Assembly (NCBI RefSeq): GCF_028657945.1
Contig: NZ_CP059693.1
Location: 1,240,001 to 1,304,000, forward strand
Reading direction: 5' to 3'
Length of the DNA: 64,000 nt
Source of the DNA: Thalassomonas haliotis
Lineage (GTDB): Bacteria; Pseudomonadota; Gammaproteobacteria; Enterobacterales; Alteromonadaceae
Below the pieces are notes generated by a model, which was not told the DNA's origin, did no database searches, and was given only the letters and a program-made list of their open reading frames with translations. This document shows, piece after piece, positions 4,521 to 40,578 of the stretch; position 1 is the stretch's first letter, and every line of letters starts with the position of its first letter. Both the position numbers and the translations under genes were made by a program.

Positions 4521-4835
4521 ATGCTGACGATTTTAACATCGCAGGAGAAGAAGGAAGTTGTGTTTGAGAGTGACATGACCATCTATGAAGCGGCATTGTT
4601 ATATCAGGAAATCATCGAAAAACTCACCTTTGATGCAGATATTACGGTGAATTTAACTCAGGTGGCAGAGATCGACACATCGGGTATTCAGCTTATTTTA
4701 CAGCTGTATTTTCTTGCTCAAGACCGTCATTTCACTTTGAACCATATTGTCCACGGTGATGCCAGTGCTCAGGCATTTGAATTATTACAGCTCGATGTTG
4801 ACCGTTTTGATCATATCTTTGATGTTAAGGTTTAA
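4521..4835 (+). CDS. STAS-domain protein (anti-sigma-factor-antagonist-like)
   Basis: 104 residues from the ATG at 4521, preferred over an upstream TTG at 4512 because GTGAG (4507-4511) is correctly spaced from the ATG. The protein is a stand-alone STAS fold with the signature EIDTSGIQLI; Ser54 is the residue phosphorylated in SpoIIAA-type antagonists. It sits between cheY and cheA with spacers of 10 and 2 bp, so it is an integral member of the chemosensory operon. STAS proteins occur in several alternative Che clusters of gammaproteobacteria. A scaffold or CheA-phosphorylated antagonist role is inference; no partner kinase of the SpoIIAB/RsbW type is nearby. Confidence 0.85.
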   Translation: MLTILTSQEKKEVVFESDMTIYEAALLYQEIIEKLTFDADITVNLTQVAEIDTSGIQLILQLYFLAQDRHFTLNHIVHGDASAQAFELLQLDVDRFDHIFDVKV

Positions 4836-4837
4836 CC

Positions 4838-7057
4838 ATGGATTTAGATCCGGTAATACAAACATTTCTTATTGAAGCGAAAGAGCAGCTGGAAGAGATG
4901 GAAGAAAAGCTATTATCGCTGGAACAAGATCCCGGGAATGCCGAAGCGGTAAATGCGGTTTTTCGCGCTGCCCATACCATTAAAGGCAGCGGCGGTATGT
5001 TTGGCTTCGAACACCTGGTTGCCTTTACCCATGAGGTTGAGTCTGTCTTGATGCGCATGCGAAAAGGGGAGTTGGCAGTTGATCAGGGACTGATCTCGGT
5101 ATTGCTCAACTGTAGTGATCATATCAGGCAATTGGTGGATTGTACCTGTGCTGAGGGTGAAAATATTTCCGGGGAAACCGGGCGGGCGAGCCGGGAGTTG
5201 ATGGATAAACTTTTCCCTTATGCTGGTAAAGCCAGACAAGCGCATGAAGACAGTGGAATTAAAATACCGGGGCCGGGTGATACAGATTCGGTGGATAATA
5301 ATGAACCGGGTTTGGAGGGGGCTGAGTCGGCAACGGTTTCTGATAACTGGCATATCTCACTCAGGTTTACTGCCTCGGTATTAAAAAATGGCATGGATCC
5401 GCTGTCATTTATTCGTTTTCTCGCTACTGTCGGCGATATTAAATCGGTACATACTTTGGCTGATAACCTGATCGCTGCCGGTGAAGCATTCGACCCCGAA
5501 AATTGTTATCTCGGTTTTGAGGTGCAGTTATATTCCCGGGCGGAAAGAAAAGATATCGAAGAAGTCTTTGAGTTTGTCCGTGATGACTGCACTCTGACTA
5601 TTATTGCCCCCCACAGCAAGACCGAAGAATATATAACCCTGATCAATTCCCGGGCAGACGACGATGCTAAGCTGGGACAGATTTTATTGCAGGTCGGGGC
5701 ACTGACGCCGAAAGAGCTGGAAAGTATTTTACAAATGCAGATGGCCACGCCGACGGAGCAAGAACCGGTAAAAGTCGGTGAACTCATCCCCGCTCAAGGG
5801 GTGGATAAACAAGTTGTGGATACTGCCCTGAACAAGCAAAAACAGTCCCGGGAGCGGCAGGCAAAAAGCAAAGCAAATGAAAGTACCAGCATGCGCATAG
5901 ATGCCGATAAACTCGACAGCCTGATCAACCTGGTTGGGGAGTTGGTAATTGCCCAGGCAAACAGTGCTTTGTTGGCCAAACAGAGCCGTATCAGTAACCT
6001 GATTGATGCCATGGCATCTACTTCGAACCTGATTGAAAGTATCAGGGATAATTGCCTGAAGCTGCGTATGGTACCTATAGGGCAAACCTTTTCACGCTTT
6101 CAGCGTGTGGTCCGGGATATCAGCCTGGAGCTGGATAAGGACATACGTTTGACCACTTCCGGGGAAGATACCGAACTTGATAAAAGTATGGTGGAAAAGC
6201 TGGTGGACCCCCTGATGCATTTAGTGAGGAATTCTATGGATCACGGCATTGAAAATGCCGAACAAAGGCTTGCGGCCGGTAAACCCGAATACGGGCAACT
6301 TGCCCTGAGGGCCTATCACGACTCCGGCAATATAGTGATTGAAGTCAGTGATGATGGTCAGGGGATCACCAAAGCGAAAGTTATCAAAAAAGCGCTAGAA
6401 AATGGCCTGATAAAAAGTGCTGACGGCATGGAGGATTATGATATCTACCGTTTGATTTTCGAACCCGGGTTTTCTACCGCAGAAACCATCAGCAATATCT
6501 CCGGGCGCGGCGTTGGTATGGATGTTGTTAAGCAAAACATTGAACAGCTTAAGGGCTCTATTGAAATCGATTCCCGCCCGGGACAGGGATTGACCATGCG
6601 TATCAGGGTACCGCTAACCTTAGCGATAATCGATGGTTTTTTGCTGGAGATCAGCAACAGTCAGTATGTGTTGCCGTTAAACAGTGTGATCGAGTGCCTG
6701 GAACTGTCCGAGTCGAGCGATATTAAAGAGATCACCCGTAATTTGATCAATTTGCGCGGTGAGGTTTTGCCTATTGTCCGTTTACGGGAGTTATTTGCCT
6801 GCCAGGACAGGCCGCCGCCCAGGCAAAATATTATTGTGGTGCGCTATGGCAACCGTAAAGGGGGTGTGCTGATTGACCGCTCTCTTGGCGAATATCAAAC
6901 AGTGATCAAACCTCTGTCCAATATTTTCAAGCGCTTAGACTGGCTCGCAGGTTCGACTATCCTGGGCAGTGGCGAGGTTGCGATGATCCTTGATGTTGCC
7001 GGTTTATTTAAAAATGCCGACTTGCAGGCGAGCGCTAAAAACTCAGGCCTGTATTAG
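4838..7057 (+). CDS. cheA: Chemotaxis histidine kinase CheA
   Basis: 739 residues. The N-terminal HPt domain carries the phospho-accepting His46 in [10 protein letters not shown]. Residues about 170-260 form a central domain of the type found in several alternative CheA proteins (HISLRF through FVRDDCTL). A linker and the dimerisation helix follow, then the kinase domain with N-box [12 protein letters not shown]1 box DDGQGI and G2 GRGVGMDVV, and finally a CheW-like regulatory domain (about 600-735, IDGFLLEI onward). It starts 2 bp after the STAS gene. It takes signals from the two MCPs of the operon through CheW and phosphorylates CheY and CheB. Confidence 0.95.
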
Positions 7058-7092: not shown

Positions 7093-9429
7093 ATGAAAAT
7101 GTCACTTCATTTGAAATTAGGTAATAAGGTGACCCTGGCTTTTGTTATTGTGACGCTGATCACTATTATTTTTACTGCTATCCTCAGTTACAACGCCGCC
7201 CATGATGCCTTGGTTTCCAGTGCCTTTTCCCGGCTGACATCGGTAAGGGAAATTCAGAAATCCCGGATTGAAGACTATTTCAAAAAGATCCGGGCGCAAA
7301 TTATTACTTATTCCGAAGATCGTATGATAGTAGATGCTATGAAAGCCTTTAAAAAAGACTTTAACAGCATAGAGAAAGAGCTGGCCTTTAATGATAAAGC
7401 CCTTGCTGGCCTGGATAGTAAACTGCGCGCCGAATATAACAATGAATTTTTAAAGCGGTTAAATAATAACCTGGATACTAAGGCCGAGCTCAATCAATAC
7501 TTGCCGAAAAACAGTACCACCAGGCTGTTGCAACATTTGTATATTGTTGAAAATCCGGAGGCAACCGGGGATAAACATAATCTGGATGTTGCACCCGACG
7601 GCAGCAACTATAGTAAAACCCATGCCAGCTACCATCCGGTCATACATAACTTTCTGAAGCAGTTCGGCTATCACGATATTTTCTTGGTGGATAATAAAAC
7701 CGGCGATATCGTTTATTCCGTATATAAAGAAATGGATTACGCAACTTCATTGTTAACCGGCCCGTATAAGGACAGCAATATCGCGGATGTTTTTCGCAGT
7801 ACCCGGGCCTCTGCCGCGGCAGATGAAATAAAGATTGTTGATTTTAAGCCCTATATTCCGACATTCAATGCCCCCGCTTCTTTTATTGCTTCCCCTATTT
7901 TTGATGGAAATGAACAGATTGGCGTGCTTATTTTTGAGATGCCGGTGGATCGCATCAATGACATCATGACAAATAATAACCGTTGGCTAGAGGCGGGCTT
8001 TGGCGAGTCGGGAGAAACTTACCTGGTAGGGGAAGATCTGACCCTGCGCAACCAGACCCGTTTTTTAATTGAAGATCAAAGTGCATACATCGAAGTGCTC
8101 AGAGATTCGGGCATGGATAACAAGCTTGTTGATAAAATTAATAAGATTAGCAGTGCCATAGGCCTGCAACCGGTGAAAAGCAAGGGAGTCAAAGCGGCCC
8201 AGCAGGGGGAAACCGGAGAAGATATTTTTAATGACTACCGCAATGTCCCTGTGCTGTCTGCCTATGCGCCACTTGATATTATCGGGGTGAACTGGATTAT
8301 TTTAAATGAACTTGATGAAAGCGAAGCCCTGGCGCCTGCATACGAGTTGAGAAATACGATTTTAATGTCGGCTTTGTTTTTATTGCTGATTGCCACTATC
8401 GTTGCCTTGTGGTTTTCCCGCACTATTATCATCCGGCCCATTAATGCCATGTTAACGGCCGCAGAAGACTTACGTTCCGGTGAAGGGGACTTGACCGCCA
8501 GGATCCCCAACTTTGGACAGGATGAGCTGGGACAAACGGCCCGATCATTAAACGGCTTTCTGGAAAAACTGCATGATGTTATTTATGAAATACGCGATTC
8601 TATCCAGGTGCTGACGGTTGCATCGACGGAAGTTAAAACTACGGCGCATTCGGTCAGCGACGGGGCTTCCCAGCAGGCCAGCAGTGTGGAAGAGACCAGC
8701 GCCGCCCTGGAACAGATGACGGCATCGATAGGTCAAAATGCGGAAAGTTCTAAAATTACCGATAATATTGCCTCCAAGGCCGCCACCGATGCCCGCGGGG
8801 GCGGTAAAGCGGTGGAACAAACGGTGTCTGCGATGCAAGAAATTGTCGAGAAAATCAGTATCATCGATGATATTGCCTATAAGACTAATTTATTATCGCT
8901 AAATGCCGCCATTGAAGCGGCACGTGCCGGCGAGCATGGCAAAGGTTTTGCCGTGGTTGCGGCCGAAGTGAGCAAACTGGCGGAGCGCAGTCAGATTGCC
9001 GCCAAAGAAATCGGCGAACTGGCGAAAAAAAGTACGGCAACGGCTGAAGGGGCGGGGGAGTTACTTGATGCCATAGTACCGGGCATAGAACAAACTGCCG
9101 ACCTGGTGCAGGAAATTGCCAATGCTTCCGACGAACAGGCAGGAGGGGTTAGTCAGATCAGTGAGGCGATGAACCTGGTGGATCAAACCACGCAAAAAAA
9201 TGCCGCCGCCGCTGAAGAGCTGGCCGCCACTTCAGAAGAAATGAGTAACCGTATTATCCAGGTCAGTCGTTTAGTCTCTTATTTTAAAGTCAGCGAGCAG
9301 GGAACTTCTTCTGCTGTGTCCACCCCCCTTAAAAGTGCGGCCAGCCCTATGGCTGGAGAGAGCGGCAAAGATGTGGCGAGAGTCCCCCAGCCTAAAATCA
9401 ATAAACAAGACTTTGAACCTTTTGAGTAA
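7093..9429 (+). CDS. Methyl-accepting chemotaxis protein with large dCache-like ectodomain
   Basis: 778 residues from the ATG at 7093, which has GGAGAG eight bases upstream; the in-frame TTG at 7078 would lie before that site. Helix 1 is at about 12-34. A periplasmic region of some 380 residues resembles a double Cache/PAS-like sensor. Helix 2 is at about 425-445, followed by HAMP and an MCP signalling domain with the tip [21 protein letters not shown]. The last residues are KQDFEPFE, in which DFEPF fits the loose x-[HFYW]-x-x-[HFYW] pattern of CheR/CheB tether pentapeptides. The gene lies between cheA and cheW, so this is likely the dedicated receptor of the operon. Confidence 0.92.
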
Positions 9430-9440
9430 GGAATAAACCT

Positions 9441-10013
9441 ATGTCTGAGCATGAAAGTCATCAAGGGGAAGAAGCGGCAGTCAGCTGCGATCAGTTTCTG
9501 ACTTTTTCCCTGGGAGATGATGAATATGGGTTGGATATACTCTCCATCAAAGAAATTATTGAATATGTTGAGTTAACCAGAATCCCCCTGATGCCTGACT
9601 TTATCCGCGGCGTACTTAACCTGCGTGGCCTGGTGGTGCCTATTATTGATTTACTGGCCAGATTTGGCAATGAACCGGCACAAACAAGCCGGCGTTCCTG
9701 TTTTGTTATCGTTGAACTGGCAACGGATGAGGGGCCATTAGAGCTAGGCATGCTGGTAGACGGCGTCAACGATGTGGTTGAAATTAGCAGCGACAATATC
9801 GAGCCGCCACCTTCATTTGGTAATCAGATCCGGGCCGATTTTATTTTTGGCATGGGAAAAATAGCCGGGCACTTTATTGTCTTACTGCAAATAAATAAGG
9901 TGTTATCCATAGATGAACTCTCGATGTTGAGCGAGATAAACCAGAGCGTTGCTCAAGCCTGTAAAGCTAACCTGAGTGAGCAGACCCGGCAACAAGATCA
10001 TGAAAACGAATGA
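9441..10013 (+). CDS. cheW: CheW coupling protein
   Basis: 190 residues. The CheW SH3-like fold is recognisable from FLTFSLGDDEYGLDI, the IKEIIEYVELTRIP segment, FIRGVLNLRGLVVPIIDL and the later LGMLVDGVNDVVEI. It couples MCP cytoplasmic tips to CheA. It lies 11 bp after the MCP gene with AAGGAAT upstream of the ATG, and its 3' end overlaps the cheR start by 14 bases. The acidic, Gln-rich tail (about 170-190) is unlike the compact end of enteric CheW. Confidence 0.93.
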   Translation: MSEHESHQGEEAAVSCDQFLTFSLGDDEYGLDILSIKEIIEYVELTRIPLMPDFIRGVLNLRGLVVPIIDLLARFGNEPAQTSRRSCFVIVELATDEGPLELGMLVDGVNDVVEISSDNIEPPPSFGNQIRADFIFGMGKIAGHFIVLLQINKVLSIDELSMLSEINQSVAQACKANLSEQTRQQDHENE

Positions 10014-10827
10014 TATGCTTGATACCAATCAACTTACCTTAAGCAAGCGGGTATTTGAGCAATTTAAAAGTCTGATGTTTAAGGAATCCGGGGTGACGCT
10101 TGGCGATGAAAAGCAAGTCATGGTTAAAGCAAGGTTGGCGAAACGGTTACGGCAATTGCAGCTGAACAGTTTTGAACAGTACTTGCAACGGGTGAAGTCA
10201 CCGGATCACCGTCAGGAAATACAACATTTAATTGATGCCCTTACCACCAATGAAACCAGCTTTTTCAGGGAAGCGCAGCATTTTGAGTTTCTGAATCATC
10301 AGCTGGCATCGTTTTCCGTTACAGTGCCGATCAGGATCTGGAGTGCCGCCTGCTCCACCGGGGAAGAAGCTTACAGCCTGGCGATGACGGTTGCCGAAAA
10401 CCGCTGTCATCCCGATTGGCAAATATTGGCAAGCGATATCAATACTCAGGTTTTGGCCAGTGCCGGACTGGGTATATATGACATAACCCGGGCTTCCTCC
10501 ATTCCCCGCCGTTATTTGATCAAGTATTGCCTTAAGGGCGTACGCAGCCAGGCCGGGCAATTGTTGTTCAGTGAGCGGTTAAAGCAACATATACGTTTTG
10601 TTTTATTAAATTTAGACGGCGAACTGCCGGAAATCGGCCGGTTCCAGTTTATTTTTCTGCGTAATGTTTTAATTTATTTTAATGAAATCAAGAGAAAACA
10701 AATCATCAACAAAATTATCAGTAAGTTAGTGCCGGGAGGTTATTTATTTATTGGCCATTCGGAAAGCCTCAGGGGGATCACGGATCTCTTGCGCCCGGTA
10801 CAGGCGACTATTTATCAAAAATGCTGA
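10000..10827 (+). CDS. cheR: Chemoreceptor methyltransferase CheR
   Basis: 275 residues from the ATG at 10000; an in-frame GTG lies at 9976 deeper inside cheW. The N-terminal helical CheR domain is followed by a SAM-dependent methyltransferase fold with TTNETSFFRE, the SAM-binding WSAACSTGEEAYS and the FIFLRNVLIYF segment. It methylates glutamates in the MCP methylation helices. It overlaps cheW by 14 bases and cheD by 7, suggesting translational coupling. The neighbouring MCP may tether it through its C-terminal pentapeptide-like end. Confidence 0.94.
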   Translation: MKTNDMLDTNQLTLSKRVFEQFKSLMFKESGVTLGDEKQVMVKARLAKRLRQLQLNSFEQYLQRVKSPDHRQEIQHLIDALTTNETSFFREAQHFEFLNHQLASFSVTVPIRIWSAACSTGEEAYSLAMTVAENRCHPDWQILASDINTQVLASAGLGIYDITRASSIPRRYLIKYCLKGVRSQAGQLLFSERLKQHIRFVLLNLDGELPEIGRFQFIFLRNVLIYFNEIKRKQIINKIISKLVPGGYLFIGHSESLRGITDLLRPVQATIYQKC

Positions 10828-11345
10828 TTATGCTTTATCTCGATAGTAAAGTGGTGCTCTTACCCGGTGATTTTTATTTTGGCAAACAAGAAGAATATCA
10901 ATATATACAAACCTTGCTTGGCAGCTGTGTCGCGTTAACCTTCTGGCATCCGGTAAAGAAAATCGGCGGTATGTGTCACTTTGTGATCCCAAGGGATGTC
11001 AGCCGGGAACAGCAGGGGGCAGCAAAGGGAGCTTTGTTAAACGGGCGCTACGGCGACCAGGCGATTAAATTGTTTCAGCAGCATATTGCCCTTCAGCAAA
11101 GTGATATACAAGAATACCGCTTGGGGCTGTACGGAGGCATGCAGACACTAAAGCTGGCGGATGAAGGAACTATGGGGCGGATCGGAAAAATAAACCTGGA
11201 TTTTGCCCGGAAGCAGATACGGGAGAATAACTGGTCGATTGCCCACAGTTATACCTCAGGTAAGGGAGCTTTAAAAATTTTAATGGATCTGGCCGACGGC
11301 ACAGTAGAGGTTTCGACGGTGGCAGAACCCAAGGGACTGACTTAA
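10821..11345 (+). CDS. cheD: Chemoreceptor glutamine deamidase CheD
   Basis: 174 residues. The deamidase signature is clear: Cys36 in LLGSCVALTF is the catalytic nucleophile and His53 in MCHFVIP is its partner; a conserved glycine-rich stretch LYGGMQTL follows. CheD hydrolyses receptor glutamines to glutamates, preparing sites for CheR, and in some systems binds a CheY phosphatase. The start overlaps cheR; a second in-frame ATG at 10830 would also serve. Presence of CheD marks this as an alternative chemosensory system rather than the enteric type. Confidence 0.92.
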   Translation: MLIMLYLDSKVVLLPGDFYFGKQEEYQYIQTLLGSCVALTFWHPVKKIGGMCHFVIPRDVSREQQGAAKGALLNGRYGDQAIKLFQQHIALQQSDIQEYRLGLYGGMQTLKLADEGTMGRIGKINLDFARKQIRENNWSIAHSYTSGKGALKILMDLADGTVEVSTVAEPKGLT

Positions 11346-32721: not shown

Positions 32722-33876
32722 TTAAAAGGCCTTTTGCCATCCCAGCATAAACATGGTGCCTGAGTCCATGCCGATCCCGGCATAATCTTCATCAATATCC
32801 CGGCCGACTTCGGCGGCTAACCTGTGGCCTTTTAAACTGCCGCCGGTGAAGAGGTAGTTGGCCCCCAAAAAGAGCGAGGTTTTTTGCTGCTCGTAATTAT
32901 CGCTTACGGCAGTAGCGGCCATCATAGGGTTGAGGCGGCTGTCGCTGCCTTCGATGGCATCTTTATCAAGATGATTTAACCTGAGCGACAGTGAGAGCTG
33001 ATGGGAGACCCTATAGGCCAGCCAGCTGTTGAGAGTGAGCTGGTCGCCGGCTTTATAATCCTGATCATTGTTCTCCACGGCGGTTTTCCATAAGAGCTGT
33101 GCGCCCCAGGAAAAGTTGCCCCGGGCCTGATTGCCGCTGTAGGTGATGCCGGTTTCCAGCTGCCAGGTATCGAAACCGGTTTGCATGCCGTAGGGTAAAA
33201 GGGCATTGTCTGCCATCGGCGTGGTATCGCGCTTTGAAATATCGCCGGTTGGCAGGGTAAAAGTGACATTGGCATGCAGGCGCTGGTTTTTGCTGTCTAA
33301 TACAGAGCCAGGCCAGGGCAGCTTGATTAACGCACCTAAGGTAATATCACCTAACGCGGAGGATGCTGTGTTGAATGAACTGCTGTTTGCCGCGTGCATA
33401 GTGCTTGAGTGCATAGCCGGGACATTTTGGCTTTGCATGTTCATGTTATTCATGATCAGATCCATGTCCTTGTCTATATAAGGCAGCATGGCCATCAGGG
33501 TGACTTCATCGCTGGGGGCATACATCAGGCCGAGCATATGCATTTGCATGGTCATTTTTTTCGGCCTTACCATAAAGTTGGTATTTGCAGCATAGTCACT
33601 GGCAGATAGCTTACTGTTGCCCTGCAACAGGCCGTCCATATCCATGTGCATATAACGGTACGACAACATCCATTCGCCGCTTTTGTGCATATGGTCCGCC
33701 ATCACGCCTATAGGGGCATGGGCATCTACCTGGCTGCTGAAGCTGGGGTGGTCTGTGCCATGGCCATAACTGACGGCGGGTAACATACTGCTTACCGAGG
33801 CAAGCAATGCGCTGGTTAAAAGTAAGGGTTTTGCCTTACTGGTTTGTCTGCTGAAGGTTTTCATTGAGAGTATCAT
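32722..33876 (-). CDS. Met/His-rich outer-membrane transporter-like protein
   Basis: 384 residues with a signal peptide (about 1-38). The mature region starts HGTDHPSF and is strikingly rich in Met and His (for example HMDMDG, MTMQMHMLG, MNNMNMQSQ, MHSSTMHAA), as in copper-handling proteins. Amphipathic strands with aromatic ends and the terminal GWQKAF suggest a beta-barrel related to the phenol-degradation meta-pathway transporter family. It is 79 bp downstream of the two-domain multicopper oxidase on the same strand. Copper binding in the outer membrane is inferred from composition and context. Confidence 0.7.
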   Translation of the reverse strand: MILSMKTFSRQTSKAKPLLLTSALLASVSSMLPAVSYGHGTDHPSFSSQVDAHAPIGVMADHMHKSGEWMLSYRYMHMDMDGLLQGNSKLSASDYAANTNFMVRPKKMTMQMHMLGLMYAPSDEVTLMAMLPYIDKDMDLIMNNMNMQSQNVPAMHSSTMHAANSSSFNTASSALGDITLGALIKLPWPGSVLDSKNQRLHANVTFTLPTGDISKRDTTPMADNALLPYGMQTGFDTWQLETGITYSGNQARGNFSWGAQLLWKTAVENNDQDYKAGDQLTLNSWLAYRVSHQLSLSLRLNHLDKDAIEGSDSRLNPMMAATAVSDNYEQQKTSLFLGANYLFTGGSLKGHRLAAEVGRDIDEDYAGIGMDSGTMFMLGWQKAF

Positions 33877-33955: not shown

Positions 33956-35029
33956 TTAATGGCTTTTGGATTTCTTTTTACGCTTTTTCTTTCTGGAAGA
34001 GCGGTCCGACTCCGGCGCCTTGCCTTTAAATAACTCGATGTTATGCAGTCCGGAGCCTTTTTTCATGGTTTCGGACATGTAAAAGTCCGCCTGGTATTCT
34101 TTGTTTTTCCAGCTATACCAGTCTTCAGTTTCCACACCTTCGTACTCTATGATAGTAACCGCGCCGCCGGGCATTTTTCCTGCGTTGGAGGTATGGTGTT
34201 CGATATGATCATGGTTGATCCAGATCCCCGGGTTATCCATACGGGCAATAATATCGACCCGGCCGCCCATAGGCACATGTACTACATCTGACCAGTAGGG
34301 GCTTTCCAGCGGCAAACCGTCTTTATGGGTCACCAGTACGTCATGACCGTGCAGGTGATAAGCAACCTCAGAGCTGGCGGCAAATAAACGAATTCTGACC
34401 ACGTCGCCTTCTTTCACCCTCAAAGGTTGGGTGATCGGGAAAGACTTGCCGTTAATGGAGAAATAATCGCTTTTCTCTGCAGGGTGACCGCCTTTGCCGT
34501 ATTCCATAGCCACTTCCGAGTTCCAGCCGGAGAACATCATGATGGCTTCCTTGGTAACTTCTTTTTCTATGTCAGCAGGTTCTTTCGGATCTATGATCAT
34601 AGGTCCCCACATGCCGCGCAGGCCCACGTGTTCGGGGACATTGACATGGCAGTGGTACCAGAGGCTGCCGGGACGGTCGACAATAAAGTCATAAACAAAA
34701 GATTCACCCGGTTCTATCGCCTTTTGGGTGACGTTGGGCACGCCGTCCATTTTCCAGCTGTTGGTTTGCAAAGTGCCGTGCCAGTGTACGGTGTGGGCCA
34801 GGCTTGAGTTATTGATGACTTTGACTTTCAGCCGGTCGCCTTCTTTGGCGCGGATCAAGGGACCGGGCACCTGGCCGTTAAAGGCCCAGACCTTGTTTTT
34901 AAAGCCGGGGGCGACATCCACGGTCATTTCTTCTACCGTCATTTCAAATTCTAAAGTTTCTGCGCCTGCCAGCTGGCTAAACAGCAAGGCTAACGGCAGG
35001 CATAAGTGTCTGAGGTGTTTGAATGTCAT
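33956..35029 (-). CDS. Two-domain multicopper oxidase (laccase-like)
   Basis: 357 residues with a signal peptide (about 1-23). Two cupredoxin domains carry the four His-x-His motifs needed for a trinuclear copper cluster: His82-Trp-His84, His126-Cys-His128, His225-Leu-His227 and His273-Asp-His275. The type 1 copper ligands are in domain 1 (Cys127, His134, Met140), giving a two-domain oxidase with T1 in the first domain; it would work as a trimer. The C-terminus ends in a Lys/Arg-rich tail (RKKKRKKKSKSH). The start codon lies only 3 bp after the cytochrome c stop and its ribosome-binding site is inside that gene. Confidence 0.85.
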   Translation of the reverse strand: MTFKHLRHLCLPLALLFSQLAGAETLEFEMTVEEMTVDVAPGFKNKVWAFNGQVPGPLIRAKEGDRLKVKVINNSSLAHTVHWHGTLQTNSWKMDGVPNVTQKAIEPGESFVYDFIVDRPGSLWYHCHVNVPEHVGLRGMWGPMIIDPKEPADIEKEVTKEAIMMFSGWNSEVAMEYGKGGHPAEKSDYFSINGKSFPITQPLRVKEGDVVRIRLFAASSEVAYHLHGHDVLVTHKDGLPLESPYWSDVVHVPMGGRVDIIARMDNPGIWINHDHIEHHTSNAGKMPGGAVTIIEYEGVETEDWYSWKNKEYQADFYMSETMKKGSGLHNIELFKGKAPESDRSSRKKKRKKKSKSH

Positions 35030-35032
35030 GTG

Positions 35033-35392
35033 TTATTCCTCTTTTTCACAGCAGATGGTTCTGACATAGGCCACTAAGTCGTGGATTTCTTCATCTGTCA
35101 TATTGGCGTCCCAGTTGGGCATCAGGTTGGACTTGCTCACCGCTTTACCGCCTTCTTTGATGGCTTTAAAGATATCTTCATCGGTACGGGTGATCATTTC
35201 TTTGGTTTCGGTATGGTCTTTGGGCAAGACATCCATAGTGGCGGCATTCACCCCCCAGCCATCGCCGTTAACGCCGTGACATTGGGTGCAATAGGCCTGG
35301 TAAAATACTTCACCTTTGACGGCATCGGCGGCAAAGGCAAGCTTTGTTGCTGCCAGCAGGGTGAGTAACGTTATTGTCTGAAGTAATTTCAT
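35033..35392 (-). CDS. Periplasmic mono-haem cytochrome c
   Basis: 119 residues with a signal peptide (about 1-21, ALAFA-D). One haem site C-T-Q-C-H (AYCTQCHGVNGDGWG) and the distal Met in SNLMPNWDANMTDEEI. The fold is a class I cytochrome of about 95 residues, ending in a Cys-Cys-Glu-Lys-Glu-Glu tail. It is placed between a di-haem cytochrome and the multicopper oxidase with 11- and 3-bp gaps and most likely carries electrons to or from the copper enzymes. Confidence 0.88.
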   Translation of the reverse strand: MKLLQTITLLTLLAATKLAFAADAVKGEVFYQAYCTQCHGVNGDGWGVNAATMDVLPKDHTETKEMITRTDEDIFKAIKEGGKAVSKSNLMPNWDANMTDEEIHDLVAYVRTICCEKEE

Positions 35393-35403
35393 GCGACGTC
35401 TCC

Positions 35404-36111
35404 TTATTCTTGTGAGATAACATTAAGGTAATTCAGTAATTTCTTAACCGAATTGTCGTTGAGATGGCGGTTGGGCATCAGGGTTTTCGGATCCCATTTC
35501 TCCGGCGCCTGGGTATAAGAGGCGATAAACGCCGGTTGCAGCCGCTTCACTGAGGTATAAAGTTCAGGGCCGGAAACACCGCCGTAGCCGTCTTCATCCT
35601 GGTGGCAGGAGCCGCAGCCTTTAAATTTGTGGAAATCTTTCTCGCCTAAGGTGCGGTTGGTTTTACCTAAGGTGACGTTTTGTTGCTGGATCAGGGCCGT
35701 TTTTGGCGTTTGCGCCATCAAATAGCCGGTAAGCTGCTGCGCCTGTTCAGGCGTGACCGCGATATGTTTGCCCAACTTGGCTTCATCTATTATGTCGCCG
35801 TCTTCGGTGACTTTGACATTATTCATAAAGAAGTGGCCGCCGGGACGAAGGCGGGTAGGGGCCGTCAGCCAGTTTTGCAGCCATGCCTTATTAAACTTGT
35901 TGCCGGCATAATAAAGGGTCGGGGCTTTTTCTTTTAATCTTTGCGCTAAAGTTATGTTGTCATTGCTGGTGATGCTGTGGCAGTCGGCACAGCTTTTTTC
36001 AAATAATTGTTTGCCTGCTTCGTTGCCCGTAGCGCTATAAGCGTTATGGGCAAAGAGCATGGCCGCCGGTAACAGCACCAGGCTGGCTTTTTTCAATAGT
36101 GTGGATTTCAT
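35404..36111 (-). CDS. Periplasmic di-haem cytochrome c
   Basis: 235 residues with a signal peptide (about 1-26). Two class I haem domains: C-A-D-C-H near residue 40 (KSCADCHSITSND) and C-G-S-C-H near residue 170 (GCGSCHQDEDGYGG), with candidate distal Met residues in FFMNN and TLMPNRH. It follows nirK after 116 bp and leads the cytochrome/oxidase genes. It is the probable electron donor to the copper nitrite reductase. A separate promoter in the 116-bp gap cannot be excluded. Confidence 0.87.
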   Translation of the reverse strand: MKSTLLKKASLVLLPAAMLFAHNAYSATGNEAGKQLFEKSCADCHSITSNDNITLAQRLKEKAPTLYYAGNKFNKAWLQNWLTAPTRLRPGGHFFMNNVKVTEDGDIIDEAKLGKHIAVTPEQAQQLTGYLMAQTPKTALIQQQNVTLGKTNRTLGEKDFHKFKGCGSCHQDEDGYGGVSGPELYTSVKRLQPAFIASYTQAPEKWDPKTLMPNRHLNDNSVKKLLNYLNVISQE

Positions 36112-36227: not shown

Positions 36228-37172
36228 TTATCTGATCACCAGGTTACCGTTTCTGCCGAGCTCAGGGTTGGCATCGGATTTGTTCATCAAGACAGTGATG
36301 GCGCCGTTTAGGGCCGACTTCATCCGGTGATCTACCAGGGCGTTATTGGTATCGCGATCGCTTGGACTGACAATGTCGGCAATCACACCGTGGGCGGGGG
36401 CGACGTCTATGGTCTGCAGGCCATGCCTGAGGTTTTTCGGATGGCCGTTATCCCAAACCTTGTCCCAGATACCGGCAATCGGGTGGAAAGCAGCGTTTTC
36501 GTTGATCTTGGCGTTGACGAAGTAAATGCGTACCCGCTCGCCCGGCTTGGACTCAAGCACCATAGAAGCATTTTGATCATGTACCGGATCGTAGTTGAAT
36601 TGTTTGCCGTTAATTAAGGCGCCTTTCCATTTTTCGTTGTTGGTCATTTCGCTTGGCGTGGCATCATCTTCAAACAAGTCTCCCTCGACAATGACATATT
36701 CGCGATCCGGCTTAGGGAAGTCTTTACTGTAGCCTTCCTTGGGATCGACGATGATCACCCCGTACATGCCGCGGGAAATATGCTCAGACATGGAGTCGGC
36801 GCCACAGTGGTAGATAAAAACTCCAGGGTATTTGGCTTCAAATTTAAAATCTTTGCGCTTACCCGGTCTGACCCCTTCAAATTCGTCCAAAACATCGACG
36901 ATAGCGGCGTGAAAATCCATGGAGTGGGACTGCTTATTGCCTTTTTTATTCAACAGGGAAAAATCCACGATATCCCCTTCGGTGACCCTGATCACAGGGC
37001 CGGGAATAGTGCCGCCGTAGGTCCACATATTATGTTTGGTGCCGGCGTTATCTATGGCGATTTCTTTTTCAATGACGGGGATTTCCACCTTGACGATTTT
37101 GGCGCTGGCGCTAAAACCTGCGGTGATGGTGAATGCGGCCAGCAGGCCGGTAGCTAACTTAGATAGTTTCAT
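36228..37172 (-). CDS. nirK: Copper-containing nitrite reductase NirK
   Basis: 314 residues with a signal peptide (about 1-24). All copper and catalytic residues of NirK are in place: type 1 ligands His83, Cys123, His131 and Met136; type 2 ligands His88, His122 and, from domain 2, His282; catalytic Asp86 (HSMDFHAA) and His230 (AAFHPIAG). It reduces nitrite to nitric oxide in the periplasm. The loop between Cys123 and His131 (GADSMSE) differs from the usual PPGMVPW type. A sigma-54 promoter and two NorR-like palindromes lie upstream, so expression is likely NO-activated. Confidence 0.92.
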   Translation of the reverse strand: MKLSKLATGLLAAFTITAGFSASAKIVKVEIPVIEKEIAIDNAGTKHNMWTYGGTIPGPVIRVTEGDIVDFSLLNKKGNKQSHSMDFHAAIVDVLDEFEGVRPGKRKDFKFEAKYPGVFIYHCGADSMSEHISRGMYGVIIVDPKEGYSKDFPKPDREYVIVEGDLFEDDATPSEMTNNEKWKGALINGKQFNYDPVHDQNASMVLESKPGERVRIYFVNAKINENAAFHPIAGIWDKVWDNGHPKNLRHGLQTIDVAPAHGVIADIVSPSDRDTNNALVDHRMKSALNGAITVLMNKSDANPELGRNGNLVIR

Positions 37173-37292
37173 ATACTTCTCCGATAAATGATTTGTCTTC
37201 TTTTAAAAAGTTGTTTTATTCTGTTTTTAATTGATTTGGTTAAAGGTTTTTCCTTGGTTTTTCTGTTAAGGCCTTAGTGCTGTCTAAGGTAT

Positions 37293-37308
37293 TACATTAA
37301 GCGTGCCA
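37293..37308 (-). promoter_or_regulatory. Sigma-54 promoter of nirK
   Basis: On the minus strand the sequence reads TGGCACGCTTAATGTA. It matches TGGCACG-N4-TTGCW at the full -24 element, with T and G kept at -12 (ATGTA instead of TTGCA). It lies 121-136 bp before the nirK start. It needs an enhancer-binding protein such as the NorR encoded nearby. Confidence 0.75.
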
Positions 37309-37371
37309 AGTTTTTATTTCTTATTTATCAGTGTGTTATGTGGTTTGGTTTTTTGGGGCAAGCCTTGGCGC

Positions 37372-37404
37372 TGTACTTTTAACAATGGGAATGTCATTAA
37401 GACA
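37372..37404. promoter_or_regulatory. Two NorR-like binding sites upstream of nirK
   Basis: TGTACTTTTAACA (37372-37384) and TGTCATTAAGACA (37392-37404) both fit TGT-N7-ACA, containing the GT-N7-AC core known for NorR. Their starts are 20 bp apart, two helical turns, and they lie about 65-95 bp upstream of the -24 element, the usual place for enhancer sites. Confidence 0.65.
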
Positions 37405-37525
37405 ACCGCGAGTTTTATGTTTTTGAGCTGCTGGTGTCTGGCAAAGAATGAGGGTGGCGCTAGTGAGATCCAGGCCGCCGGCAGTAGAAACATTACCAGT
37501 GGCCCGGAGTTTTACTGGGCTTTAA

Positions 37526-38458
37526 TCAGGCCTTTTGGGGCTCCAGGCCGGGCGCTTTATTACCTGTCATTAAGGCGTAGATATAAGAAAGGGATAATAA
37601 AAGCAGCGGACAAAGCTGATAAAAAAATTCAGTGATATTGCCGGTATCTCCCTGTTGCCTGCTAAAGCAGCAATCAAGGAAAATGGGCAATAAGCATAGC
37701 GGCAGGCATAGCAATAAGCCCTGAAAATTACGCCCTTTGGACCCGAGCCGGGCTTTGACCGGCAATACCGTCAGCACTGTAAAGAGCAGCAATAATACCG
37801 CGGCAAAGCCGAAGACCTGCTGGTAAACGGAATAAATATCTAAAGCTTCGGCGGTGATTTTAAACAGCGTATACAATACCAGCAGCCATTTGCTTTGCTC
37901 TGCCAGGTAATGGGCGGCGCTGTATCTGTTGTTGTGCGGCATCAACAGTGTTAAATGGTCAAAGTAGAGGATGAGCACTAACAGCACCGAAGTGGTTAAG
38001 GTAAGTAAGGCATTGACAGCGGCGATCGTCTGCTCTGATGTCAGCCCGGTTAACAGCACATGGCGGGCCAAAAACAAACAGGCGCTGGCGCCGATGGCGA
38101 TAATGCCGGCATCAACATTAAAATCGCCATGGCGGCTTTGCTGGATAAGCAGGGCATAGGCACAGGCGAAAAAGATCACGGCATCAAGATATAATACCGG
38201 CGCCAGCAATGCCTGCCAGACAATAAAGTGTTTAATTGACATCATTAAGAGAATGAAAAAGAACATGTTTGTTAAATTAACACAGCTGTTTGAATGCCGA
38301 CGCCTGATGATCTCGACATTGGCCCTCAACGCCAGCAGAGAAAGCAACAGCAGGTGATTGGCACCGCTTAGTGTCGTTAATGACAAGATAAGCAAAATGA
38401 AGGTTTGCAGTATCGCTATTTTGTTCCGGCCATAGAGATAAAGGGGATGATAAAGCAT
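37526..38458 (-). CDS. Multi-pass membrane protein of unknown function
   Basis: 310 residues, about eight hydrophobic helices, with short loops. I do not recognise the family; it is shorter than NnrS and lacks its landmarks. Several histidines lie at or near helix ends (SIKHFIVW, FLARHVLLTG, YFDHLTLLMPH, SAAHYL), which would allow haem or copper binding. It begins 3 bp after the 139-residue membrane gene with AAGGAG before the ATG. The pair lies between nirK and norR, divergent from norR, so a link to NO or nitrite metabolism is likely but unproven. Confidence 0.75.
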   Translation of the reverse strand: MLYHPLYLYGRNKIAILQTFILLILSLTTLSGANHLLLLSLLALRANVEIIRRRHSNSCVNLTNMFFFILLMMSIKHFIVWQALLAPVLYLDAVIFFACAYALLIQQSRHGDFNVDAGIIAIGASACLFLARHVLLTGLTSEQTIAAVNALLTLTTSVLLVLILYFDHLTLLMPHNNRYSAAHYLAEQSKWLLVLYTLFKITAEALDIYSVYQQVFGFAAVLLLLFTVLTVLPVKARLGSKGRNFQGLLLCLPLCLLPIFLDCCFSRQQGDTGNITEFFYQLCPLLLLSLSYIYALMTGNKAPGLEPQKA

Positions 38459-38461
38459 AGC

Positions 38462-38881
38462 TTACTCCTTTATTTTAATGGCAATCAGGGTGAGCCAGGT
38501 TAATAAAATAACCTTGGTCAGTTCGGCTGTCAGGTAAAGCCAGTGATGGTTGCCGCCGGAATGTATGCCTTGCTCTATATAGATTGCGGCTTGCTGGCTT
38601 AGTTGCGGCAGCAGGTAGTAAGACTGGTAACTAAATAACAACAATAAGGACAGGGAGAGTATCCATAAGTCCCTGGTTTTGTAGCGCAGGACCGTCATTA
38701 GCAGCGCCAGCATCAGCAGCCACTGGAAGCTGTCAAAGGCATTAAACACAGTACGGCCGACATCCAGGCCTATTTTTAAATCCACCAGGGATGCATTGAA
38801 TTTAACTTTGGCTTCCATGGTGATGGCAGCAATAGCGCCAAGCCAGAAGCAACAGAGTAAAGCAAGAAGTCTTTTTGACAT
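38462..38881 (-). CDS. Small four-helix membrane protein of unknown function
   Basis: 139 residues with four predicted membrane helices (about 5-22, 48-68, 72-93, 115-135). The first loop contains MEAKVKFNASLV and LDVGRTVFNAF, a pattern I have seen in small DUF4149-like or TMEM205-like membrane proteins but cannot assign with confidence. It is translationally adjacent to the 310-residue membrane protein (3 bp apart) and divergent from norR across an 83-bp gap to its proposed start, so it may share the regulatory region. Confidence 0.7.
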   Translation of the reverse strand: MSKRLLALLCCFWLGAIAAITMEAKVKFNASLVDLKIGLDVGRTVFNAFDSFQWLLMLALLMTVLRYKTRDLWILSLSLLLLFSYQSYYLLPQLSQQAAIYIEQGIHSGGNHHWLYLTAELTKVILLTWLTLIAIKIKE

Positions 38882-38964
38882 TAAAACTGTTCCGATTTAA
38901 GCTAGATAACTCCTATACAGCAAGTAGCAGGCCAGAGCGGTCAGAGGCTGATCAGAAGTATCCT

Positions 38965-40578
38965 ATGAGTCAAAAAACACCCTACGAAATCAATACCGAA
39001 CGCTTGTGTATGGACCTGCTTGCGGCACTTGAACCGGAAGACAGTCTCAGCGCCCTGGCCGAGGTGATAGCAAAATATTTTCATGCCGATGCGGTGTCTA
39101 TTTTGGAATTTAACGAGCCGTTATTGCATCCGGTAGCCCTGTACGGGTTTTCTAAAGATACCTATGGCCGGCGTTTTGACCTGGCCAATAACCCGAGACT
39201 GATGAAAATTGTCAGCGATGAACAGCCGACGATTTTTGCCGACGATATCGGCCTGCCGGATCCTTTTGACGGCTTGATTCTGGATAAACAGGGACGGCTG
39301 GAAGTACACTCCTGCAGTGGTTTGCCCATCAGGCAACATGGCAACCTGCGTGGCATTATTACCCTGGACTCCCTGGATTTGCAGGTCTTTAACCGCTTCC
39401 CTGAGGAAAACTTTAATACGGCGTCGGCGTTAACCTCGAAAATTGTCTTGGCGGCGATAGATAACCAAAACCTGAAAGAACAACTTTCCAAGAAAACCAT
39501 CTTAAACCAGACCTTGATTGAAGCCTCTATCGGGGTGAAAACCGAACTGGTGGGCGAATCGGAGCAAATCGAGCATTTAAGAAGGGAGATCAATATCGTG
39601 GCCCCTTCGGATTTGTCGGTGCTGGTGACCGGGGAAACCGGGGTCGGTAAGGAAATCGTCGCCAAGTCTATCCATGGCCAGTCCAAGCGTTTCGATAAAC
39701 CGCTGATTTATGTCAACTGTGCCGCCTTGCCTGAGTCTATTGCCGAGTCTGAATTATTCGGCCATGTGAAAGGGGCCTTTACCGGCGCGACGACCAACCG
39801 CAGCGGCAAGTTCGAACTGGCCAATGGCGGTACCTTATTTTTAGATGAAGTCGGCGAATTGCCGCTGGCGATTCAGGCCAAGATATTACGCGCTATCCAG
39901 TACGGCGATGTCCAGCGAGTCGGCAGCGACCGCCATGTTACCGTTGATGTCCGCCTGGTGGCGGCAACGAACCGCAATTTGATGGATGAAGTCAAAGAAG
40001 GCCATTTTCGTGAAGACTTGTACCACAGGTTAAGTGTTTATCCTATCCATATTCCGCCGCTGAGGGATCGTTTGTCGGATATTGAATTGCTGGTGGGCTT
40101 TTTTATGGAAAAAAACCGCATCAAATTGGGCCTGCAAAGTGTACGCCTGGATAAGCAGGTGTTGCCTGAGCTGCTCAGCTATAGCTGGCCCGGTAATGTC
40201 CGGGAACTTGAACATGTGATGAGCAGGGCCATGCTCAGGGCGGCCTCGGCCCGGCATGGCAAAATAGTCACCTTATTACCCGACGATATCGACAGTTCGG
40301 TCAGAGCAAGTAGCACAGTGAAAGCAACCGGGGGAAGCACTTTGGAGGGCCATAGCGATAATAACCAGATTGTGGATAATAAAGCACCGGTTGTTATTCC
40401 TGAGCTTGAGACGGGGGAATTAAACCAGGGCCTCAATACCATGATGGATAATTACCAGCGGACTTTGCTGCAGCACGCCTTAAAGCAGTCCGGCGGTAAA
40501 TGGAATAAGGCGGCAGAGCTGCTGGCCATAGATAAGGGCAATATCCACCGTTTGGGAAAACGCCTGGGGTTAAAATAG
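38965..40578 (+). CDS. norR: NO-responsive sigma-54 activator NorR
   Basis: 537 residues from the ATG at 38965; an in-frame ATG at 38875 overlaps the divergent gene and adds a non-conserved, low-complexity leader. The GAF domain keeps the iron-nitrosyl region of NorR: Asp-Pro-Phe-Asp-Gly-Leu-Ile after residue 98, and His115 and Cys117 in EVHSCSGLP. The AAA+ domain has Walker [15 protein letters not shown], the sigma-54 contact, and Walker [10 protein letters not shown]. The C-terminal Fis-type helix-turn-helix ends with [18 protein letters not shown] binding relieves GAF repression of the ATPase. No flavorubredoxin or NO reductase gene is adjacent; nirK is the best local target. Confidence 0.93.

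What the first reader, a model, noticed from the sequence alone, without database searches (positions are those of the whole stretch)
36228..40578. NorR, a sigma-54 promoter and paired palindromes appear to put nirK under NO control
The sequence 136-121 bp before nirK has a TGGCACG -24 element at sigma-54 spacing. Two TGT-N7-ACA palindromes lie 20 bp apart about 65-95 bp further upstream. NorR, a sigma-54 activator binding GT-N7-AC, is encoded in the same region. NorR is known for flavorubredoxin or NO reductase genes; nirK under NorR would be positive feedback, since NirK makes the NO that activates NorR, and no NO-removing enzyme is seen here. The link between regulator and site is inference.
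Basis: partly seen in the sequence, partly recalled or inferred. Interest (0 to 1): 0.72.

Follow-up and report, generated by a model that had tools for sequence, protein, structure and literature searches.

The report
NorR-controlled nirK-ncg gene cluster
A copper nitrite reductase gene in a probably marine bacterium, followed by three electron-transfer genes, carries a conserved DNA switch that looks built to turn it on when nitric oxide is present, where many relatives seem to use a different nitric-oxide switch.

Summary
In detail: two TGT-N7-ACA palindromes 20 bp apart and TGGCACGCTTAATGTA precede nirK as stated. The strict tandem occurs once in the 6.45-Mb genome. In two congeners these elements are conserved islands (39 of 42 bases invariant; 78 of 191 elsewhere upstream of the promoter). 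In 62 nirK loci, tandem sites plus a sigma-54 element precede 9 of 10 norR-linked clusters, 0 of 13 Rrf2-linked and 1 of 39 with neither in view. NsrR-like boxes stand out in 12 of 13 Rrf2-linked loci and 0 of 10 norR-linked. NorR keeps its iron ligands, RpoN is present, and the only Rrf2 protein is IscR.

NorR's other apparent targets here remove NO, so the cluster probably serves NO/nitrite tolerance rather than runaway feedback. I found no report of NorR at nirK. All evidence is sequence-based.

The parts
36228..37172 (-). nirK: two-domain copper nitrite reductase, nitrifier type, with signal-peptide-like N-terminus (by eye)
   Evidence: Best solved relative 4kns (329 bits, next 146); TIGR02376 175 bits, under its 296-bit cut-off; Cu and catalytic residues H83 D86 H88 H122 C123 H131 M136 H230 H282 present (assignment recalled)
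35404..36111 (-). dihaem cytochrome c (ncg-type)
   Evidence: two CXXCH, Pfam Cytochrom_C, found beside nirK in relatives
35033..35392 (-). monohaem cytochrome c (ncg-type)
   Evidence: one CXXCH, Pfam Cytochrome_CBB3, found beside nirK in relatives
33956..35029 (-). two-domain multicopper oxidase (ncgA-like)
   Evidence: 2zwn 446 bits, 3g5w 359 bits; found beside nirK in relatives
32722..33876 (-). outer-membrane-type protein (Phenol_MetA_deg family), possible last gene of the operon
   Evidence: Pfam; follows the MCO in L081 and, as a split match, L083, and in L013, L019, L028
37293..37308 (-). sigma-54 promoter-like element TGGCACGCTTAATGTA in front of nirK
   Evidence: 15 of 16 positions invariant in two congeners
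37372..37384 (.). NorR-type site, promoter-proximal
   Evidence: TGT-N7-ACA; 12 of 13 positions invariant
37392..37404 (.). NorR-type site, distal (GTC-N5-GAC)
   Evidence: TGT-N7-ACA; 12 of 13 positions invariant
38965..40578 (+). norR: GAF - AAA+ - Fis-type HTH activator; ATG 38965 preferred over TTG 38875
   Evidence: NCBIfam NorR 646.7 bits, cut-off 476; iron-ligand residues conserved; only full-length NorR match in the genome
38919..38934 (-). second, stronger sigma-54-like element TGGCCTGCTACTTGCT, 53 bp before the 139-aa gene
   Evidence: Score 13.5 of 15, only one that high in the window; identical in all three congeners, also the one without nirK. No GT-N7-AC upstream of it in the 420 bp scanned
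38869..38879 (.). single NorR-type site GTCTTTTTGAC overlapping the start of the 139-aa gene, 86 bp before the norR ATG
   Evidence: Same 11-mer in all three congeners; codes for the first residues of the 139-aa gene, so conservation may be coding
37526..38458 (-). unknown hydrophobic protein, 310 aa, between nirK and norR
   Evidence: no Pfam or NCBIfam match; 66-69% identical in two congeners; structure model too poor to use
38462..38881 (-). unknown hydrophobic protein, 139 aa, divergent from norR
   Evidence: no Pfam or NCBIfam match; beside norR in all three congeners

Best explanation
The NorR encoded at 38965-40578 binds the two palindromes at 37372-37404 and, when NO occupies its GAF-domain iron, activates sigma-54 RNA polymerase at 37308-37293. 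This transcribes nirK - dihaem cyt c - cyt c - two-domain copper oxidase (an ncgABC-nirK cluster in another gene order), perhaps with the porin gene. The divergent pair beside norR probably has a sigma-54 promoter of its own. The cluster most likely serves NO/nitrite tolerance rather than respiratory denitrification, so the loop is induction of a defence by its stressor, not runaway feedback. Many relatives seem to keep the same cluster under an NsrR-type repressor; here an NO-activated activator stands in its place. Shown: genes, sites, conservation, association with norR. Inferred: binding, NO response, transcription start, operon, role.
For: Sites and promoter present, strict tandem unique in the genome. 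Footprint in congeners. Arrangement upstream of 9 of 10 norR-linked loci, 0 of 13 Rrf2-linked, 1 of 39 with neither in view. E. coli norV shows the same geometry when scanned for sites and sigma-54 element. The five linked NorRs tested (L014, L018, L021, L027, L028) all pass the NCBIfam NorR cut-off. R75, D96, D99, H111, C113, D131 identical in all 24 aligned rows, one gene counted twice. RpoN present. The only Rrf2 protein passes the IscR cut-off TIGR02010. L016's genome has NorR elsewhere and still shows two sites and a sigma-54 element at nirK. ncgABC/nirK tied in print to nitrite tolerance and NO consumption (PMC5080386 passages).
Against: Two sites, not the three that E. coli NorR needs at norV (PMC2941729 passages). 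The -12 half is degenerate, and the score of the nirK element is common (56 in the window). The stronger sigma-54-like element lies in front of the 139-aa gene, so part or all of nirK transcription could start there. The residue at E. coli R81 is S here; PMC2941729 reports that serine there removes repression in E. coli, though the position varies among NorRs. L028, norR-linked, fails the rule: good sigma-54 element, one site, in front of an extra gene. L023's and L030's genomes have NorR, yet nirK there has NsrR-like boxes. In L083 the sites lie 13 bp further out. No experiment.
Confidence: 0.68

Rival explanations
1. NorR control is real, but the cluster is a denitrification NirK that makes NO, giving positive feedback, limited by the NO reductases elsewhere in the genome.
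For: All Cu and catalytic residues of a nitrite reductase are present; the genome has likely NO reductases to take up the NO.
Against: The ncgABC-nirK cluster is linked in print to nitrite tolerance and NO consumption; the other apparent NorR targets seen here remove NO; norC shows no NorR arrangement upstream.
Confidence: 0.2
2. The sigma-54 promoter that matters is 38934-38919, in front of the divergent pair; nirK is reached by read-through, and the sites at 37372-37404 are secondary or act on that promoter from downstream.
For: That element scores 13.5 of 15, the only one so high in the window, and is identical in all three congeners, including the one without nirK; a single NorR-type site overlaps the start of the 139-aa gene. 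The pair lies directly upstream of nirK on the same strand.
Against: No GT-N7-AC in the 420 bp upstream of it; the pair has no match in L013, L014, L018, L019, L021 or L027, whose nirK carries its own sites and sigma-54 element; sites and -24 element before nirK are conserved islands.
Confidence: 0.1
3. NorR does not control nirK; the sites serve another regulator and nirK runs from a sigma-70 promoter.
For: GT-N7-AC is short and the -12 half is weak; the loose arrangement also turns up at two other places in the window.
Against: Association with linked norR and the NorR/Rrf2 dichotomy; footprint; no sigma-70-like site passed the simple consensus scan of 37170-37530.
Confidence: 0.08

Closest known systems
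E. coli NorR - norVW
   Same: NorR with GAF/AAA+/HTH, tandem GT-N7-AC sites, sigma-54 element 66 bp beyond the last site
   Different: Target is nirK-ncg rather than flavorubredoxin; two clear sites instead of three; degenerate -12; two genes lie between regulator and target
Nitrosomonas europaea NsrR - ncgABC-nirK (PMC4940428 and PMC5080386 passages; PMC1274295)
   Same: Cluster of a two-domain copper oxidase, two cytochromes c and nirK; 4kns and 3g5w are recalled to be the N. europaea NirK and blue copper oxidase, and the roles of NcgA-C are recalled
   Different: nirK first instead of last, and NorR/sigma-54 instead of an NsrR-type repressor
NorR - hmp and NorR - norB regulons predicted by Rodionov et al. 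2005 (PMC1274295)
   Same: norR clustered with its target, tandem sites, sigma-54 promoter, and a lone NorR site before a norR gene (norR2); relatives here show NorR beside hmp and norCB-like and qnorB-like genes (by eye)
   Different: In section 10 and the passages read, nirK is listed under NsrR and DNR, not NorR

Membership tests
NorR (NO-responsive sigma-54 activator) | Full-length match to the curated NorR model | tested here: met
   NF003451 646.7 bits over cut-off 476
NorR (NO-responsive sigma-54 activator) | Non-haem iron ligands in the GAF domain (set recalled; R75 also in PMC2941729) | tested here: met
   R75, D96, D99, H111, C113, D131 as in E. coli in 24 of 24 rows
NorR (NO-responsive sigma-54 activator) | R81 interdomain-repression residue of E. 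coli | tested here: not met
   S in the window; the position varies across the 24 rows, so it does not define the family
NorR (NO-responsive sigma-54 activator) | GAFTGA loop and Fis-type HTH | tested here: met
   kgaftga in the alignment; [15 protein letters not shown] against E. coli NLHRLAKRLGLK
NorR (NO-responsive sigma-54 activator) | Responds to NO | not testable with these tools
   Needs protein or reporter
NorR-dependent promoter | Tandem GT-N7-AC sites upstream of a -24/-12 element | tested here: met
   Two sites, -24 perfect, -12 partial
NorR-dependent promoter | Three sites as at norVW | tested here: not met
   Two in the window, L081 and L083; three or four in L013, L014, L018, L019, L027; two predicted at Vibrio hcp
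ncgABC-nirK cluster | nirK with two-domain copper oxidase and two cytochromes c in one run | tested here: met
   same content in relatives
Copper nitrite reductase (NirK) | Type 1 and type 2 Cu ligands and catalytic Asp/His | tested here: met
   assignment to known numbering recalled
Copper nitrite reductase (NirK) | TIGR02376 equivalog cut-off | tested here: not met
   175.2 bits against 296.3; this subtype is divergent

The most novel reading that the evidence does not exclude
The nirK-ncg cluster is an NO-consuming device (NirK and partners oxidising NO to nitrite, or otherwise removing NO). That is why it sits under whichever NO sensor is at hand: an NsrR-type repressor in many lineages, NorR in several. 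The NorR link is then regulon evidence that this NirK type runs, in vivo, opposite to its textbook direction.
Probability: 0.25. Interest if true: 0.82.

Novelty: new variant of a known kind. Interest (0 to 1): 0.62.

Why it matters
What nitrifier-type NirK and its ncg partners do is unsettled: suggestions in print include nitrite tolerance, NO consumption and NO oxidation (passages). The same cluster behind two unrelated kinds of NO sensor, one of which otherwise governs NO-removing enzymes, points to NO as the substrate or stress that matters. It also offers a non-nitrifier host in which to test this. For NorR it adds a target class that I did not find in print.

Tried and rejected
Rejected: the sites as chance; NsrR control in this genome (best NsrR-like match at nirK reached by 100 of 100 shuffles, and the only Rrf2 protein is IscR); a second NorR in this genome (one full-length match); Hmp in this genome (the only globin is part of a 1118-aa MCP-type chemoreceptor). 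Led nowhere: the structure of the 310-aa protein (mean pLDDT 44.7 with 3 sequences), so no fold search was run; Beaumont 2005 (not held); Thalassomonas with nitrite reductase in print (listing only). The NorC- and NorB-like proteins of L114, L115, L135 and L136 had no NCBIfam match at E 1e-15 (6 of 6); their names rest on PF00115 (own genome), a neighbouring NorQ-type AAA protein and reading by eye.

NorR at nirK in print: searches of an open-licence library. Of the 22 papers with both words (listing seen), passages were read in PMC1274295 (and its section 10), PMC5710167 and PMC6977074; none reports it. The other 19 were not opened.

Rows: 62 loci from 57 genomes, some being tandem nirK copies. 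Left out: L010-L012 (same places as L013, L015, L016); L051 and L053 of the 23 class hits; L082, which has no nirK. Six of the 39 rows with neither regulator in view had no upstream sequence, and many phylum loci have 1.5-kb flanks, so their lead gene may not be the operon start. L029's genome is not held and was not searched.

Full report
What is there. nirK (36228-37172, minus strand) leads a run of same-strand genes: a dihaem cytochrome c, a monohaem cytochrome c, a two-domain multicopper oxidase and an outer-membrane-type protein. The nearest solved relative of NirK is 4kns (329 bits; the next is 146), and the oxidase matches 2zwn and 3g5w. I recall 4kns and 3g5w as Nitrosomonas europaea NirK and blue copper oxidase; the tool names no organism. 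The gene content is that of ncgABC-nirK, here with nirK first. norR (38965-40578, plus strand) lies beyond two unknown hydrophobic proteins and scores 646.7 bits on the curated NorR model (cut-off 476). The source organism was not identified; relatives among the order's hits are marine-looking alteromonads by record title.

The sites. The strict tandem occurs at one place in the whole genome and the reversed control pattern nowhere. In two congeners with the locus, 39 of 42 bases in the three elements are invariant, against 165 of 311 in the rest of the region and 78 of 191 in the rest upstream of the promoter; 2 of 242 placements of the same geometry, the true one included, do as well. The third congener, G1087, lacks nirK, the cytochromes, the oxidase and the 310-aa gene at this place but keeps norR and the 139-aa gene.

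A second promoter-like element. The strongest sigma-54-like match of the window, TGGCCTGCTACTTGCT at 38934-38919 (minus strand), lies 53 bp before the 139-aa gene and is identical in all three congeners, G1087 included. A lone GTC-N5-GAC site at 38869-38879 overlaps the start of that gene in all four. No GT-N7-AC lies in the 420 bp upstream of the element. Rodionov et al. describe a lone NorR site before norR2 in Vibrionales and suggest autoregulation. So the divergent pair is probably sigma-54-dependent too; whether NorR acts there is open.

Comparison. One search gave 18 relatives from named genomes; two searches gave 23 and 15 further genomes in samples of 369 and 398 (the window's own excluded), and one search gave 3 of 394 in the order besides the window. 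I scanned 62 loci from 57 genomes with one rule: two GT-N7-AC sites 13-30 bp apart, then a sigma-54 element scoring at least 11.5 of 15, 35-130 bp on. Result: 9 of 10 norR-linked, 0 of 13 Rrf2-linked, 1 of 39 with neither in view; expected from shuffles 0.02, 0.03 and 0.07. The exception among the 39, L015, is a cut contig whose genome has a norR 67% identical to the window's. Fisher's test gives 5e-9 without correction for kinship; with norR-linked loci collapsed by hand to seven lineages, 6 of 7 against 0 of 13 gives 2e-4 (the collapse is mine, and Rrf2 loci were not collapsed). The norR-linked miss, L028, has a good sigma-54 element and one site in front of an extra gene before nirK. L016 misses the rule because its two sites are 34 bp apart; its NorRs lie elsewhere in the genome. 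L017 has a good sigma-54 element, one weak site and a NorR elsewhere.

The other regulator. Against a recalled NsrR consensus, 12 of 13 Rrf2-linked upstream regions have a best match reached by at most 2 of 100 shuffles, as do 11 of the 18 scanned with neither regulator in view; 0 of 10 norR-linked do. Four of the Rrf2 proteins (L020, L022, L023, L030) match both the NsrR and RirA models under their cut-offs, and L026's matches Pfam Rrf2, so 'NsrR-type' is the safe name. Five of 13 genomes searched have no NorR match at E 1e-90, and none of these five shows the arrangement at nirK. Two genomes, of L023 and L030, have NorR (beside norCB-like genes by eye, and beside hmp by NCBIfam) but an Rrf2 gene and NsrR-like boxes at nirK.

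The regulator. In a 22-row tree the NorRs of the window, its congeners, L014 and L015's genome form a 100/100 group. The nirK-linked NorRs of L018/L019 and L021/L027 fall outside it, among NorRs beside norCB-like (L136) and hmp (L084-L086, L138) genes. This suggests that NorR met nirK-ncg more than once; the tree is small and midpoint-rooted, and L028 is a long branch. Iron-ligand residues are identical in all 24 aligned rows (one gene is in twice). The residue at R81, critical for repression in E. coli, is S here; PMC2941729 (passages) reports that serine there removes repression in E. coli. The position varies among NorRs, so I read nothing firm into it.

The genome. One RpoN. One Rrf2 protein, over the IscR cut-off of TIGR02010 and next to iscS. 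NorCB-like proteins with a CbbQ/NirQ/NorQ-type protein nearby, and a 756-aa NorB-like protein. No Hmp: the only globin is in an MCP-type protein. norC shows no NorR arrangement upstream.

What it probably does. NorR's other targets, known or apparent, remove NO: norVW in E. coli, hmp, norCB-like and qnorB-like genes (by eye). Passages of PMC5080386 report that nirK and ncgABC confer nitrite tolerance in N. europaea, with nirK harmful in ncgABC mutants, and that Nitrobacter winogradskyi could consume NO while NO production by its nirK could not be confirmed. PMC10999283 (passage) cites a suggestion that N. europaea NirK oxidises NO to nitrite. I therefore favour a defence role over runaway feedback, with the direction of NirK chemistry unsettled.

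Novelty. Rodionov et al. 2005 (PMC1274295, section 10 and passages) give norVW, norB, hmp, hcp, nnrS and dnrN for NorR, and nirK for NsrR and DNR. Searches found no report of NorR at nirK in an open-licence library; most subscription papers are not held.

Noticed in passing
L115:8824-8836 and 8867-8879 (own genome, upstream of the NorB-like gene): Two perfect TGTC-N5-GACA palindromes 43 bp apart, about 19 and 62 bp before the start codon, too close to act as an ordinary sigma-54 enhancer; a third lies at 9664. They may belong to an unidentified repressor, or to NorR acting otherwise.
   Followed up: partly
L084, L085, L086, L116 (congeners): Three congeners carry a second NorR divergent from a 393-aa flavohaemoprotein-type gene (NCBIfam tested on L116), with GT-N7-AC sites seen upstream in L116 and L085; the window's genome has neither gene.
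   Followed up: partly
window 37526-38881: Two hydrophobic proteins (310 and 139 aa) between nirK and norR have no Pfam or NCBIfam match; the 310-aa one is 66-69% identical in congeners whose NirK is 97% identical. The pair has the strongest sigma-54-like element of the window.
   Followed up: partly
L014:9685 and gene 9824-10861: A second NorR-type arrangement (two sites and TGGCATAATCCCTGCA) precedes a pyridine-nucleotide reductase gene between the ncg cluster and norR: a possible further NorR target.
   Followed up: no
L131:3951-4382 and 4644-5696: Near the norR of L015's genome lie an Rrf2 gene and a Pyr_redox_2 gene (Pfam), so both kinds of NO regulator may meet there.
   Followed up: partly
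L082/L117 (G1087): nirK-ncg genes absent at the locus while norR and the 139-aa gene with its sigma-54-like element are kept; what NorR does there is open.
   Followed up: partly
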